From Ilumatobacter coccineus YM16-304 (GTDB lineage Bacteria > Actinomycetota > Acidimicrobiia > Acidimicrobiales > Ilumatobacteraceae), in contig NC_020520.1 in assembly GCF_000348785.1 (NCBI RefSeq), positions 4,588,001 through 4,652,000 on the forward strand: a stretch of DNA of 64,000 bases, in the 5' to 3' direction. Below are positions 1 to 4,695 of the stretch, in pieces; the first letter of the stretch is position 1; every line of letters starts with the position of its first letter. The notes below the pieces were generated by a model. It did not search any database, was not told the origin of the DNA, and worked only from the letters and a program-made list of their open reading frames with translations. Both the position numbers and the translations under genes were made by a program.

Positions 1-704
1 GCGGTCGACTTGAACGGCTTTTCGAGAGCCCGAATCGATTGCCAGAGCGTGCGCTCGCCCGCGCCGACAAGCTCGGTGTTTCGCTGCGAGATGAGCTGTC
101 GAGCTATCGCTACGCCTTCGTCGGCCAGCCGCTCGTCGTACTCGTCTGCCAAGTTCACGAGGCGCCGGCGGGCGTGCTCCCGGTCGTCGTCATTGATGCC
201 GTAATAGAAGATGCGCTTGCCACCGGCAAGGCGGAGAACGTCGGCACCCTGCGGCCAAACACGCCTGACCACCGCATACAGGAGGGCTCGCTCGCTGAAC
301 CTGCCGCTCCGATGACCGAACTTGAACGAGGTGCCCGGCGTCAGCGAGATGACATTGACACCCTTCTTCCGAAGGCCAGATGCGGCGATCAACTTGGTCA
401 GTCGGTCGGCGGACTCCTCGGCGCCATCGGCGAAGTCACGGAACTTGCGGAGGTTCTGACGTGCGATCGATTGGCTCGAGCAGATGTAGACGATGTCGAT
501 CCGTCGATCGCCAAGGTCGTGCAGGTGCTCGATGGTCTTGGCAACCACGCCTTTCGCCACGAGGGTCTTGCCGAGTCCGACTTCGTCGGCAACCAGGAAC
601 CGAGAGCTGGACGACTCGCGGAACAACCCGTCGAACACGGCCTCGACTGTGTTGGCTTGGAACGGCTTGAGTGTCGGGCGAACATCGTCCCATGTCGGTG
701 TCAT
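1..704 (-). CDS. SNF2-type DEAD/DEAH helicase, N-terminal part (truncated by window edge)
   Basis: Reading leftwards from an ATG at 704, the frame stays open to base 1, about 234 codons with no stop. The protein begins MTPTWDDVRPTLKPFQANTV and soon reaches VADEVGLGKTLVAKG, the Walker A (motif I) form typical of SNF2-like superfamily 2 translocases, followed by a motif-Ia-like segment YICSSQSIARQNL. The start overlaps the stop of the upstream phospholipase-D gene by the ATGA junction at 701-704, so the two are translationally coupled. It is inferred to be the motor subunit of a three-gene system with the PLD and DUF6361 proteins. The C-terminal helicase motifs lie outside the window, so intactness cannot be judged. 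Confidence 0.85.
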   Translation of the reverse strand, partial: MTPTWDDVRPTLKPFQANTVEAVFDGLFRESSSSRFLVADEVGLGKTLVAKGVVAKTIEHLHDLGDRRIDIVYICSSQSIARQNLRKFRDFADGAEESADRLTKLIAASGLRKKGVNVISLTPGTSFKFGHRSGRFSERALLYAVVRRVWPQGADVLRLAGGKRIFYYGINDDDREHARRRLVNLADEYDERLADEGVAIARQLISQRNTELVGAGERTLWQSIRALEKPFKST

Positions 705-2509
705 GACGCGACCTCCTGGTCGATGTACGGCTGGAGCGCTGCCCAGAGTTCGCCGAAACCGGCAGGCAGCACGTCGGGGTCATCGGCAACGAGGTCGGCG
801 AGCACGGCATCGAGGTGCCGGAGCTCGGCGGGGTCTTGGGCCAGCAGCCGAAGGAGCTGTTCGAGGATCGGCCCGTCGTGCAGCCGGGATGAGCGCGACC
901 GGCGCTTGCTGGGCACTGCGGTGTTCACCTCGTTGCCATCTGGGACCACGAACGGTTCTCGCGAGTTCTCCAGGAGGAAGCGGAGGAACCGTCGAAACTT
1001 CTCCTCGTCGGTGAGCAGCGACCGAAGCGCTCGCCGCTGGCGCCCCTGGGGCATGTCGATGTCGCCGACCAGAACGACGTCGATCGCGTCGAGGCGGCCA
1101 GTCGGGTCACTGACGCGTGCCACGACGAACCTCGTGACGTCACCAAGGTGGAGTTGGGTGGTGACCGGCTCACCGTCGAGCAGTTCGTTCGAGAGCGGTT
1201 CGTGTCGGGTCAGCCATCGCAAGCTGATGTCGTACCCGCACCTGTCGATCGGGCGAGCGAACTCGAGTTGCACGGCGAAGAGTTCGCCATCGTCGTCGGC
1301 CACCGCTGCGCTCCCGGAGAGGCGAGCGCTCGACAGGTTGTGCACCGTGTCGTCGAACAACCTGCTGTCGGCGTCGGCATCATCGTCGTCGGCCGCTCCC
1401 CCGATCCAGGGTTCGAGCATGTCGCGCAGAACGAGTTCGTCGGAGTCGTCGTCGGTGGCCTCGGTGGCGACCGATTGTCCGAGCAGAGCGTGAACCCCGA
1501 GCGTGTCGAGTGAGCCGCCGAGCCTGACGAGCACTTCGTCATTGTGAGCGAGCCCTGCACCTGTCGCGTTCGCTGAGCCGAGCCAGAGCGATGCCACATC
1601 GCCAACATCGAAGGCGAACACTTTGGCGTGCAGGTCGGCTCCCAATCGAGCGTCTTCTCCCGATTCGATACCCGACAGGTCGGTGTTCATGGTGAAGGCG
1701 TCGAAGCCTTTGGCACGCTCGTCGTCGAGCGATGCCGACCGCGACACCAGGAAGGAGTCGCCGGAGGCTGGCGGTAGTTTGCGTAGCGCATCGGCCCCGA
1801 GGAACGGCGAGATCACCAGGCGGCGATCGCACTTCGGCGGGAAGCGGTCGACGAGCGAGTCTTGGCCCGAGAGCCACACGATCTCCGCGGTGTCGCATCC
1901 CGGCGGAGCGGCAAAGGATGCGGCGTCGAGGTCTGTGGCGATCGAATCGATGAGCTGTTGGCGTTGCTCGGCGACAGCGATCATCGACCTCGACGGCAGC
2001 GAGCGGAGCATCCCGGCCAACGGCTGACCAGAAGCCGTGCCCTCGGAGGCATCGGTCGAGTCGAGGCGAACGAGCACGTCCCATGACGAGCCCAGGGAGA
2101 GGTTTCGACTGCCCACGAGAACGCGGATCCCGGTCCCGCCGCTGGGCTCTCGGAACCGGAGGATCCACACCTTCGGATGGAAGGTCGAGTTCCGTGGCAC
2201 TCGCACTGGAATGACCATTTCATCGAGGAACGAGGTGAGTTCTTCGGTGCCGACGGTGAATGGCGTGGCTGCCCCCGCCTGATGGAACACGATCGTTCGT
2301 TCGGCGAATCGGCGAAGCGAATCGGCGAGCAGAATCGGGTCGGCTGCTGCCAAGGAGTCGCTCTCGTGTTGGGTCACCCACGCAGCGGGCGGAATCAGCA
2401 GCGCGTCGAGCGAGAGGGTGTAGGTCATTCCGATCGCGGCGTCGATCTGGAAGCCTGCTGGCGGGCGGAGTGCGTCGAGCAGCAGCAACCGTTCGTTGGG
2501 AGCGAACAT
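701..2509 (-). CDS. Phospholipase D-like (HKD) nuclease-family protein
   Basis: A 602-residue protein starting at the ATG at 2509, which overlaps the stop of the DUF6361 gene (TGATG). Two half-sites of the HKD/PLD fold are visible: FHPKVWILRF followed by VGSRNLSLGSS near residue 145, and LHAKVFAFDVG followed by WLGSANATGAGL near residue 300. Both carry H-x-K and the downstream G-S-x-N, so the active site looks intact. PLD-fold proteins in defence loci (for example DISARM DrmC or NgoFVII-type enzymes) are usually nucleases. An acidic stretch (GGAADDDDADADS) lies in the C-terminal half. The gene sits between DUF6361 and SNF2-helicase genes with overlapping ends, which points to one complex. A nuclease role is inferred. 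A start further upstream would lie inside the previous gene. Confidence 0.85.
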   Translation of the reverse strand: MFAPNERLLLLDALRPPAGFQIDAAIGMTYTLSLDALLIPPAAWVTQHESDSLAAADPILLADSLRRFAERTIVFHQAGAATPFTVGTEELTSFLDEMVIPVRVPRNSTFHPKVWILRFREPSGGTGIRVLVGSRNLSLGSSWDVLVRLDSTDASEGTASGQPLAGMLRSLPSRSMIAVAEQRQQLIDSIATDLDAASFAAPPGCDTAEIVWLSGQDSLVDRFPPKCDRRLVISPFLGADALRKLPPASGDSFLVSRSASLDDERAKGFDAFTMNTDLSGIESGEDARLGADLHAKVFAFDVGDVASLWLGSANATGAGLAHNDEVLVRLGGSLDTLGVHALLGQSVATEATDDDSDELVLRDMLEPWIGGAADDDDADADSRLFDDTVHNLSSARLSGSAAVADDDGELFAVQLEFARPIDRCGYDISLRWLTRHEPLSNELLDGEPVTTQLHLGDVTRFVVARVSDPTGRLDAIDVVLVGDIDMPQGRQRRALRSLLTDEEKFRRFLRFLLENSREPFVVPDGNEVNTAVPSKRRSRSSRLHDGPILEQLLRLLAQDPAELRHLDAVLADLVADDPDVLPAGFGELWAALQPYIDQEVAS

Positions 2510-3744
2510 CAGGACGCCTCCGCGATGTCGTCGGCGAAGCCGCGGACGCGTCCCCAGCGGTAGTCGAGTCGGTTCGACGCGAGCATGGTCGGCTGTTTCA
2601 TCCAACGCCTGAACGGCTCACCTCCGCCGAGTCGTGCCTTGTTCTTCTTGAGTGCCCCTTCGATGCCACGGACGAGACGGTGCAGTTCTGGGTCGTCGAG
2701 ACACCCGTCGGGGTCGGCGACGACGCGATCGATCGCCGATCTGACGAATCTCCGTCGCCTTGGTTCGAGCCGAATTTCGGGATCGGCGAGCAAGCGATCG
2801 AGTGGCTCGCCTGCCCACTCCCGAAGTTGGTCGAGACGCGAATCGGTTTCGTCGCGCCATGCGGCGAAGGAATCGTTCAGCTGCGTTTCCATGTCGCCCA
2901 ACTCGAGGCCTTCGGCGCTGCGGGCGTCGTCGATCAGCAACTTGGTGTAGGCGAGCCGTGCGGGATGGATGAGTTCGCTGAAGCAGCGGGCGTCGGTCAT
3001 GGCTTGACCACCGATGGTTTCGTCGACCGACCATGGGCGGCGGCCGTGGCGAAGCCGCTCGTCGGTCAGGGCTGCATGAAGAGCAGTTCCACCGCACGTC
3101 GCTGCAACACGGTCGACGAGGTAGTCCGCCTGTTCGCGTGTCAGGCCCAATTCTTGGTCGGCGCCCGGGAAACCGGCGGAGCTTGGCGGAAAGTCCGACG
3201 GGAGAATCCCCACCGCCTTCGACTCCGCCATGAGTCGCGCGTCGTCACTCAATTGCGCGGCATGGCCCGAGGAAACTCCTGGCGCAAGCGCGCTCAGGTC
3301 GTCGAGTCGGAACCCGTTGGGGATGAGGCCCCAGCGGTCGAGCGTCGACCAGTAGACCGAGATCGGTGTGGTTCGGATGTTCTCGCGACTGCGCCGACCG
3401 AACAGCCCTCGGTGGTCGTCGCTGTCGAGGAGCGAGCGCATCAGTTCGAGTTCATCGTGCCGGAGGCGCGCCGACAGCGAGGCCGACCCACCTGTGGCAG
3501 CGATCCGCTGGAGATGCCAACCGCAGAAGAGGACGTATTTCGCTCGCGTGTGCTGGGTGGTCACACCTGGAAACAGTCGATCGGACAGTGCAATCAGGAT
3601 GGGCAAGATGCCGTGAGGGTCGACCGCTTCGGGAGCGGTGAGCATGCCGAGCATCTCTCGAACTCGGCGCGCTTCGTCTCGATCGACGTCGATCCATCCG
3701 ACGGAGCTATCCGGCTCCCAGACCACAGATTCTGTCCGCAACAT
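2509..3744 (-). CDS. DUF6361 family protein, first gene of the PLD/helicase operon
   Basis: A 411-residue protein. The N-terminal part contains GWIDVDRDEARRVREML and later DRLFPGVTTQHTRAKYVLF. This pattern (GWID, then an lFPG..t.qtRakY block) matches what I know of the DUF6361 family, whose biochemical role is unknown. No membrane segment or signal peptide is visible. The gene heads a coupled minus-strand operon with the PLD protein and the SNF2-like helicase. The 156-base gap to the divergent nuclease gene at 3901 should hold both promoters. Family assignment is by recognition only and needs a profile search. Function may be recognition or regulation for the helicase-nuclease pair (inference). 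Confidence 0.8.
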   Translation of the reverse strand: MLRTESVVWEPDSSVGWIDVDRDEARRVREMLGMLTAPEAVDPHGILPILIALSDRLFPGVTTQHTRAKYVLFCGWHLQRIAATGGSASLSARLRHDELELMRSLLDSDDHRGLFGRRSRENIRTTPISVYWSTLDRWGLIPNGFRLDDLSALAPGVSSGHAAQLSDDARLMAESKAVGILPSDFPPSSAGFPGADQELGLTREQADYLVDRVAATCGGTALHAALTDERLRHGRRPWSVDETIGGQAMTDARCFSELIHPARLAYTKLLIDDARSAEGLELGDMETQLNDSFAAWRDETDSRLDQLREWAGEPLDRLLADPEIRLEPRRRRFVRSAIDRVVADPDGCLDDPELHRLVRGIEGALKKNKARLGGGEPFRRWMKQPTMLASNRLDYRWGRVRGFADDIAEAS

Positions 3745-3900
3745 GACGCTATCCTGGCATACCCCTCGAACCCGGTCGTGCGAGAACGGGCGCCACCGCA
3801 GATCGCGCTGCGAGCTGAGGCCCGACGCGCCTCGTCATCGATCGAAATCGGGACGTACTGTCGATGGGATCAACGCCCGAACGACGCCCCGGAGGCCGTC

Positions 3901-4695
3901 CTGCCGAAGCACGCCAACCCGCCGTGGTCTGAGTCCGAACGCATCCTTGCCCTGGAGCTGTATCTCCGGCGCGGGATGGTGTCGAAACGCGATCCTGAAC
4001 TGATCGCGTTGTCGGAACGCCTTCGCGATGCACACCTCGCTGCGACCGGTGCCGTTAGCGAGACCTTTCGCAACCCGACTGGCGTGTCGCTCAAGCTCGC
4101 CAACTTCGCCGCGCTCGATCCCGAGCATGTCGGCGTCGGAATGCAGCGGGGCAGTCGCGGTGACGTGGAGACGTGGAACCAGTACAGCGGAGACACTGAT
4201 GCGCTGGCCAGCGCCGCTGATCGAGCTCTGGTCAAACTCCCCGCGACGAACAGTCCTGGGTCCCAGCCGCTGTTCCCGCTCGAAGAGTCGTCCGGTCACG
4301 ACTTCCAGGTGTCCGTTGACTCGGCCGTGCGCACGGCTACCCGGCGTGAAGCTGCGCTGGTCCAGCGATTCGGTTCCTGGCTTCGCGCACAGGGGCATGA
4401 GGTCGGCAGCCACCGTTACGAGCTGGAGTCGAGCGAGCTCCGATCGGACCTGGTCGACACCACGACGACCACGCTTTGGGAAGCAAAGAGCGAGGTCGGG
4501 CGGAACGCGGTCCGGCTCGCCATCGGCCAACTGTTCGACTATCGACGCCACGCTGTTGGAGAGTGGTCGATCGGTGTGCTGCTTCCGCGCCAACCCCACG
4601 ACGACTTGATCGCTCTCTGTGCATACGTCGGAGCGAGCGTGGCGTGGCAGAAGTCTGGCGAAACGACAGACTTCACCGTCACGACGGCCGTGTAG
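3901..4695 (+). CDS. PD-(D/E)XK-type restriction endonuclease-like protein
   Basis: About 264 residues. The N-terminal domain (PPWSESERILALELYL, then FRNPTGVSLKLANFAALDP) is a module I associate with HNH and McrA-like restriction enzymes. The C-terminal domain contains SDLVDTTTTTLWEAKSEVG followed by RLAIGQLFDYRRH, a D...E-x-K signature plus the typical 'GQL.dY' helix of PD-(D/E)XK nucleases. The start is uncertain. The frame has no ATG near the conserved domain. A CTG at 3901 is preceded by GGAGG at 3891-3895 with a 5-base spacer, and a GTG at 3778 lies further up without a ribosome site. It is divergent from the DUF6361 operon and convergent with sbcC. Base use resembles the neighbours. Confidence 0.75.
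   Translation: MPKHANPPWSESERILALELYLRRGMVSKRDPELIALSERLRDAHLAATGAVSETFRNPTGVSLKLANFAALDPEHVGVGMQRGSRGDVETWNQYSGDTDALASAADRALVKLPATNSPGSQPLFPLEESSGHDFQVSVDSAVRTATRREAALVQRFGSWLRAQGHEVGSHRYELESSELRSDLVDTTTTTLWEAKSEVGRNAVRLAIGQLFDYRRHAVGEWSIGVLLPRQPHDDLIALCAYVGASVAWQKSGETTDFTVTTAV

What the first reader, a model, noticed from the sequence alone, without database searches (positions are those of the whole stretch)
1..3744. Three-gene DUF6361 / PLD nuclease / SNF2 helicase operon: possible undescribed defence system
Seen: three overlapping minus-strand genes (DUF6361, intact HKD phospholipase-D-fold protein, SNF2-type helicase beginning VADEVGLGKT). Known: PLD plus helicase combinations form defence systems such as DISARM, but DISARM needs a methyltransferase and a DUF1998 protein, neither of which is here. 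Inference: DUF6361 is the recognition or control part of a helicase-nuclease system that I cannot assign to a named type.
Basis: partly seen in the sequence, partly recalled or inferred. Interest (0 to 1): 0.75.

Follow-up and report, generated by a model that had tools for sequence, protein, structure and literature searches.

The report
An Azaca anti-phage defence operon
This three-gene bacterial operon is a divergent copy of Azaca, an already named anti-phage defence system made of a helicase, a PLD-type nuclease and a helper protein, so it is a real defence system but not a new one.

Summary
The trio is real and complete, but it is a known system. All three proteins match the PADLOC models ZacA (DUF6361), ZacB (PLD) and ZacC (helicase) nearly end to end (E = 6.6e-75, 4.8e-129, 5e-274). 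The Hachiman paper lists ZacC under 'Azaca' (PMC12278908); other papers trace Azaca to Millman et al. 2022. The window cuts the helicase: the full gene is 1045 aa and runs 2.4 kb past the window edge.

All 16 DUF6361 matches in 296 genomes of the class lie in A-B-C order (14 on one contig, 2 split by contig ends). Of the 80 best loci elsewhere, 69 show A-B-C, 8 are cut by contig ends and 3 are broken copies.

ZacB's predicted structure holds a two-motif PLD fold, closest to Tdp1 and phospholipase D, then PLD3. ZacA is all-helical without a convincing match.

Best mechanism, inferred: ZacC senses abnormal DNA and ZacB cuts it, with ZacA as adaptor. The mechanism of Azaca stays open, above all the trigger and ZacA. 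Interest is low.

The parts
2509..3744 (-). zacA: DUF6361 protein, 411 aa, all-helical by prediction
   Evidence: PADLOC ZacA 6.6e-75 over residues 13-410; PF19888 5.6e-25; AlphaFold2 model pLDDT 85.4, residues 1-40 poor
701..2509 (-). zacB: PLD-fold protein, 602 aa; starts at ATG 2507-2509, 1-nt overlap with zacA
   Evidence: PADLOC ZacB 4.8e-129; both HxK motifs, N314 and E325 conserved; model residues 1-382 match Tdp1, phospholipase D and PLD3 at Z 17.6-20.1 among the 50 rows shown
1..704 (-). zacC, 5' part (234 of 1045 codons) of an SF2 helicase with RapA/SNF2-like motifs; the gene continues beyond the window to genome 4585567; 4-nt ATGA overlap with zacB
   Evidence: full ORF L003:13567-16704; PADLOC ZacC 5e-274 over 10-1036; core motifs conserved in 71 sequences

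Best explanation
The operon is an Azaca (ZacA-ZacB-ZacC) anti-phage defence system, a sequence-divergent member (identity confidence about 0.97). Proposed mechanism (confidence about 0.5): ZacC is an ATP-driven SF2 translocase that patrols DNA and is triggered by a phage-associated DNA structure such as an end or a replication or recombination intermediate. ZacB, with one PLD active site formed by its two HxK motifs, then cleaves or trims that DNA (without a metal, as recalled for PLD enzymes). ZacA is an adaptor or specificity subunit that holds or licenses the other two. Shown here: gene order, coupling, co-inheritance, conserved catalytic residues, predicted PLD fold of ZacB. Inferred: complex formation, the trigger, DNA as substrate, and every role of ZacA.
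For: Identity: near-full-length PADLOC matches of all three proteins; 'Azaca (ZacC)' in PMC12278908 (passage); PLD-like domain listed for Azaca, citing Millman et al. 2022, in PMC10952713 (passage). One machine: ZacA and ZacB overlap by 1-17 nt in 14 of 15 copies measured and abut in the other, ZacB and ZacC overlap by 4 nt in 11 of 13; distance matrices of A, B and C correlate at r = 0.91-0.95 over 67 loci, 0 of 2000 permutations reaching it (at least two duplicate pairs). Helicase: core motifs nearly invariant in 71 ZacC; weak profile match to RapA in motif V-VI (3.2e-5). Nuclease: H111, K113, H294, K296, N314, E325 at 0.98-1.00 in 83 ZacB; Tdp1 Z 20.1, PLD3 Z 18.8. Defence context: 105 flanking ORFs hit 58 PADLOC families against 7 for 119 control ORFs at E <= 1e-20; a PDC-S11 nuclease-like gene and a NERD-helicase lie downstream of the window's zacC. 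Precedent: Hachiman, a sensor helicase plus effector nuclease (PMC12278908, Discussion read).
Against: ZacB's fold fits a phospholipase D as well as Tdp1 (7e0m_A Z 19.8 against 20.1, a tie), and polyphosphate kinase is also among the Foldseek hits, so DNA as substrate is not shown by fold. The ZacC-RapA link rests on one stretch of about 43 positions. The ZacA model matched nothing convincing (best Z 3.9). The flank enrichment counts redundant models, not proteins, and one of the 58 is a leftover piece of ZacC. No activity data on this copy; a 2026 review lists Azaca's mechanism as unknown (PMC12926258, passage).
Confidence: 0.6

Rival explanations
1. Azaca acts by abortive infection: ZacB is a true phospholipase that attacks the membrane when ZacC and ZacA sense phage nucleic acid.
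For: ZacB model matches phospholipase D 7e0m_A (Z 19.8) and phosphatidylserine synthases (Z 17.8-18.0).
Against: Tied match to the DNA enzyme Tdp1 and close match to PLD3; profile match of the second PLD motif region to a chain called 'putative helicase', 7clg_A (1.8e-5); weak matches to DISARM DrmC; pairing with a helicase.
Confidence: 0.1
2. An end-processing rather than restriction machine: ZacB works like Tdp1 or PLD3 on ends or on protein-linked DNA ends, ZacC feeding them in; host repair could be the primary role.
For: Tdp1 tops the structural list, tied with a phospholipase D, and PLD3/PLD4 follow; the first PLD motif has HxK without the D, as recalled for Tdp1; the window copy lies near SbcC/SbcD-like genes.
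Against: Patchy presence (no DUF6361 match in the same genus or family except the window's genome; 20 such genomes are listed), plasmid carriage (45 records) and defence-rich flanks fit defence better than core repair. SbcCD adjacency was not tested in other copies.
Confidence: 0.15
3. A DISARM or Dpd derivative that borrows a modification gene elsewhere in the genome for self/non-self discrimination.
For: ZacC's motif V-VI stretch matches DpdE (1.5e-16) and DrmD (7.9e-13) models far below their cut-offs; ZacB touches DrmC weakly; some copies do have methyltransferase-like neighbours (one member each for DrmMI, PglX and type II/IIG models among 105 flanking ORFs; by eye an HsdM-like cluster in 4 of 96 loci).
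Against: Equivalog cut-offs missed by about an order of magnitude (59.6 of 500 bits, 47.6 of 610); no flanking family of any kind recurs in more than 11 of 96 loci, so no constant methyltransferase partner within the stretches held.
Confidence: 0.08

Closest known systems
Azaca (ZacA, ZacB, ZacC; Millman et al. 2022, known here through other papers)
   Same: All three components nearly full length, same order, same motifs
   Different: Sequence-divergent: median ZacA identity to the 66 other loci compared is 25%, against 40% between loci overall; PF19888 score 88 bits against 162-244 for the other 15 matches of the class
DISARM (DrmC PLD, DrmD SNF2-like helicase)
   Same: Helicase plus PLD-fold protein in one operon; short similarity of ZacC to DrmD and of ZacB to DrmC
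   Different: No methyltransferase and no DUF1998 protein in the trio; equivalog cut-offs not reached
Dpd (DpdE helicase; a PLD protein DpdK is recalled)
   Same: Motif V-VI similarity to DpdE
   Different: 59.6 bits against a cut-off of 500; the trio has no modification gene
Hachiman (HamAB)
   Same: Same proposed logic: sensor helicase plus effector nuclease
   Different: HamA is DUF1837 and HamB a Ski2-like helicase; no Ham model among the PADLOC matches of the trio; Azaca has a third protein and a PLD fold
Mokosh / PLD_Helicase
   Same: PLD-like domain and helicase (Mokosh in the table of PMC10952713)
   Different: Only a 38-residue match of ZacC to the PLD_Helicase model (E 1.9e-4)

Membership tests
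Azaca / Zac | ZacA (DUF6361) homologue | tested here: met
   PDLC03828 6.6e-75, residues 13-410, profile 3-393/396
Azaca / Zac | ZacB PLD protein with intact catalytic motifs | tested here: met
   PDLC03829 4.8e-129, profile 1-583/586; both HxK motifs present
Azaca / Zac | ZacC helicase, full length, intact motifs | tested here: met
   PDLC03830 5e-274, residues 10-1036; motifs intact
Azaca / Zac | contiguous co-directional A-B-C operon | tested here: met
   same order in 16 of 16 class matches, two of them split by contig ends
Azaca / Zac | protects against phage | not testable with these tools
   needs plaque assays
DISARM | DrmD / DrmC at equivalog level | tested here: not met
   47.6 of 610 and 16.4 of 133 bits
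DISARM | DUF1998 (DrmB) and methyltransferase in the operon | tested here: not met
   no such match for the three proteins; not every neighbouring ORF was scanned
Dpd | DpdE at equivalog level | tested here: not met
   59.6 of 500 bits
Hachiman | HamA/HamB homologues | tested here: not met
   no Ham model among the matches of the three proteins at E <= 0.1 (24, 6 and 1 families, all shown)

The most novel reading that the evidence does not exclude
ZacA (DUF6361) is an all-helical recognition subunit of a fold not yet solved, and ZacB is a Tdp1/PLD3-like end-processing enzyme, so that Azaca would recognise and trim free or protein-linked DNA ends made during phage replication or packaging: a chemistry that I do not know of in another helicase-nuclease defence system.
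Probability: 0.1. Interest if true: 0.5.

Novelty: new member of a known kind. Interest (0 to 1): 0.15.

Why it matters
It takes a claimed new defence system off the list and files it correctly, linking Pfam's DUF6361 to the ZacA subunit of Azaca (no paper in the library searched holds the word DUF6361). It also gives Azaca a frame for a mechanistic study: conserved residues to mutate in all three proteins, a structural assignment for ZacB, and copies in bacteria, archaea and plasmids.

Tried and rejected
A single-sequence search for ZacA relatives in genome contigs found none among 49 candidate stretches; an alignment of class homologues then confirmed 314 of 341, of which the best 80 were kept and 234 not examined. 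Viral contigs: none of 36 candidate stretches. Phage records: 1 of 50,697. E. coli genomes: no match by distant blastn with 4 kb of the Enterobacter copy L119; this is DNA-level only, and PMC10121019 lists Azaca among the systems identified in its E. coli data set (passage). Solved structures by sequence: nothing credible for ZacA; only RapA motif matches for ZacC. Fold search of ZacA: 0 matches at E <= 0.001 and no Z of 5 or more; this does not prove a new fold.

The first literature searches showed nothing on this system in the rows listed (20 of 504, 0 of 0, 14 of 14, 0 of 0, 25 of 170), because it goes by 'Azaca'; the name came from a passage of PMC12278908. Passages of PMC12458937, PMC13379101, PMC12479173 and PMC11756799 held nothing on it. 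My first guess that Zac meant 'Zorya-associated' has no support. The Millman et al. 2022 paper is not held, so its phage data were not read.

Recurrent neighbours: no flanking family occurs in more than 11 of 96 loci; the largest cluster contains pieces of ZacC from two loci, so 11 is an upper bound. Base composition as a sign of transfer: GC of the trio (0.64-0.65) is that of the surroundings (0.65), so it shows nothing. A DNA search of the stretch beyond zacC in 40 relatives gave only partial matches in 17 (the own genome among them); no empty-site comparison was made.
Full report
What is there. The window is bases 4588001-4652000 of a 4.83 Mb genome held as one contig. At its left edge lie three minus-strand genes. 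ZacA (2509-3744, 411 aa) is DUF6361 (PF19888, 88.6 bits against a cut-off of 25). ZacB (701-2509, 602 aa) is a PLD protein. ZacC starts at 704 and runs off the window; the neighbouring stretch shows a complete 1045-aa ORF, L003:13567-16704, genome 4585567-4588704. ZacA and ZacB overlap by one base (TGATG) and ZacB and ZacC by four (ATGA).

What it is. Against PADLOC-DB the three proteins match ZacA (6.6e-75, residues 13-410), ZacB (4.8e-129, residues 33-630 of the TTG-started form) and ZacC (5e-274, residues 10-1036), each over nearly the whole model. A methods passage in the Hachiman paper lists 'Azaca (ZacC)' among defence systems with an SF1/SF2 helicase (PMC12278908, passage). PMC10952713 lists a PLD-like domain for Azaca, citing Millman et al. 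2022 (passages). PMC12629846, PMC10121019 and PMC11680222 name Azaca among the defence systems of Pseudomonas, E. coli and Stenotrophomonas collections (passages). PMC13321033 cites Millman et al. for 2 of 382 archaeal genomes (passage). The Millman paper is not held; that it tested Azaca against phages is recalled, not read. A 2026 review lists the mechanism as unknown (PMC12926258, passage).

In 296 genomes of the class, DUF6361 has 16 matches in 14 genomes, all over the cut-off, and none in 14 control genomes. Each of the 16 is followed by ZacB and ZacC: 14 on one contig and one strand, while in G137 and G129 the operon is split by contig ends. G174 has ZacC in two frames and G237:C13 has one stop in ZacC. 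The ZacB and ZacC models are less specific than DUF6361: they also ring in 5 and 6 of the 14 control genomes, and ZacC matches 63 of 296 genomes at E <= 0.001. ZacC matches of 300 bits or more occur in 15 genomes: the 14 with DUF6361 and G158, where ZacC lies on a 5-kb contig without ZacA. The other 48 have partial matches of at most 73 bits; two of these (G295, G181) cover only ZacC's C-terminal end and may be remnants. No genome of the same genus or family other than the window's own has DUF6361 (20 such genomes are listed), so presence is patchy.

Wider set. With an alignment of class ZacA, 314 of 341 candidate stretches in the genome collection encode a relative; the best 80 were kept, so 234 more distant ones were not examined. 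By their record titles the 80 include cyanobacteria, Acidobacteria, Planctomycetota, Verrucomicrobia, Anaerolineae, several proteobacterial groups, Desulfobacteraceae and methanogenic archaea. Of the 80, 69 have A-B-C in order; 8 end at a contig end within the operon; 3 are broken: in L094 and L133 the zacB frame ends early and other sequence follows (a transposase-like ORF by eye in L094), and in L137 the zacA frame is cut while B and C follow. In 79 of 80 at least a piece of zacB follows zacA; L125 ends 162 bases after zacA. No locus of the 80 shows DUF6361 with another partner. On plasmids 45 records hold a ZacA relative, 33 of them over at least 80% of its length and 19 from Cronobacter. 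Two of the 45 were examined: both have the annotated trio, one beside a tyrosine integrase and one, an archaeal plasmid, beside an HNH endonuclease, and all six proteins match the Zac models over nearly full length.

Parts and mechanism. In 83 ZacB sequences H111, K113, R129, N136, W143, D144, H294, K296, N314 and E325 are present in 98-100%. In 71 ZacC sequences the motifs DEVGLGKT, DEFQRF, SATP, TSIGQEGLDFH and QREGRVHR are nearly invariant, apart from positions 900 and 933 (both sets contain duplicate pairs). The window copy keeps them. The ZacB model (pLDDT 86.1) aligns over residues 1-382 with Tdp1 (Z 20.1, rmsd 3.9, 285 aligned), phospholipase D (19.8), PLD3 (18.8) and phosphatidylserine synthase (18.0). 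So one chain holds both halves of a PLD active site, but the fold alone does not choose between DNA and lipid. The ZacC profile matches RapA only in motif V-VI (3.2e-5). The ZacA model (pLDDT 85.4, residues 1-40 poor) is all-helical without a convincing match. Distances between loci for A, B and C correlate at 0.91-0.95 over 67 loci, 0 of 2000 permutations reaching it, as expected for parts inherited together. By analogy with Hachiman, where a sensor helicase restrains and then activates an effector nuclease (PMC12278908, Discussion read), I propose sensing by ZacC and cleavage by ZacB; ZacA's role as adaptor or specificity subunit is inferred.

Context. The 105 flanking ORFs of 150 aa or more around 14 class loci (of the 16; the two split ones were left out) hit 58 PADLOC families at E <= 1e-20, one of them through a leftover piece of ZacC; only the first 25 families are shown. 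119 control ORFs from 16 other stretches of 14 class genomes (12 of which supplied the flanks) hit 7. These are families, not proteins, and the models are redundant. Downstream of the window's zacC are a PDC-S11 candidate with a NucS-like domain and a NERD-UvrD helicase; the ORF between zacA and the SbcC-like gene has a weak HNH-model match. No methyltransferase is a constant partner: by eye an HsdM-like cluster occurs in 4 of 96 loci, and single flanking ORFs match DrmMI, PglX and type II/IIG models.

Verdict. It is a sequence-divergent Azaca. What is open is Azaca's mechanism, above all the trigger and ZacA.

Noticed in passing
L003:12145-13518 (genome 4584145-4585518), + strand, convergent with zacC: Nuclease-like protein with a NucS C-terminal domain, strong match to PADLOC candidate PDC-S11 (3.7e-148).
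   Followed up: partly
L003:9288-10922, - strand: NERD domain fused to a UvrD-like helicase, resembling the RTasNERD-Hel model (1.5e-31); no reverse transcriptase was looked for.
   Followed up: no
L003:11392-12309, - strand: DUF7662 domain protein of unknown function between the NERD helicase and PDC-S11 genes.
   Followed up: no
window 3880-4692, + strand: Open frame between zacA and the SbcC-like gene with a weak match to an HNH model (1.7e-9); no Pfam family.
   Followed up: partly
L056, L095, L106, L116, L118, L127 upstream of zacA: A helicase-like protein (by eye, not scanned) clusters in 8 of 96 loci, upstream in six and 50 bases from zacA in three: a possible accessory gene.
   Followed up: no
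L094 and L133, zacB region: zacB frame ends early and other sequence follows (transposase-like by eye in L094) while zacA is intact.
   Followed up: no
G295:C201:3196-3444 (L036) and G181:C2:112393-112584 (L037): Short matches to only the C-terminal end of ZacC (73 and 69 bits); possible remnants of Azaca.
   Followed up: no
L156 (MT835621.1, unverified phage scaffold from human faeces): Unannotated record with a partial ZacA relative and a ZacC relative about 2 kb apart; may be a bacterial fragment or a mobile element.
   Followed up: no
L138 and 18 further Cronobacter plasmid records: ZacA relatives recur on Cronobacter plasmids; in L138 the trio lies beside a tyrosine integrase.
   Followed up: partly
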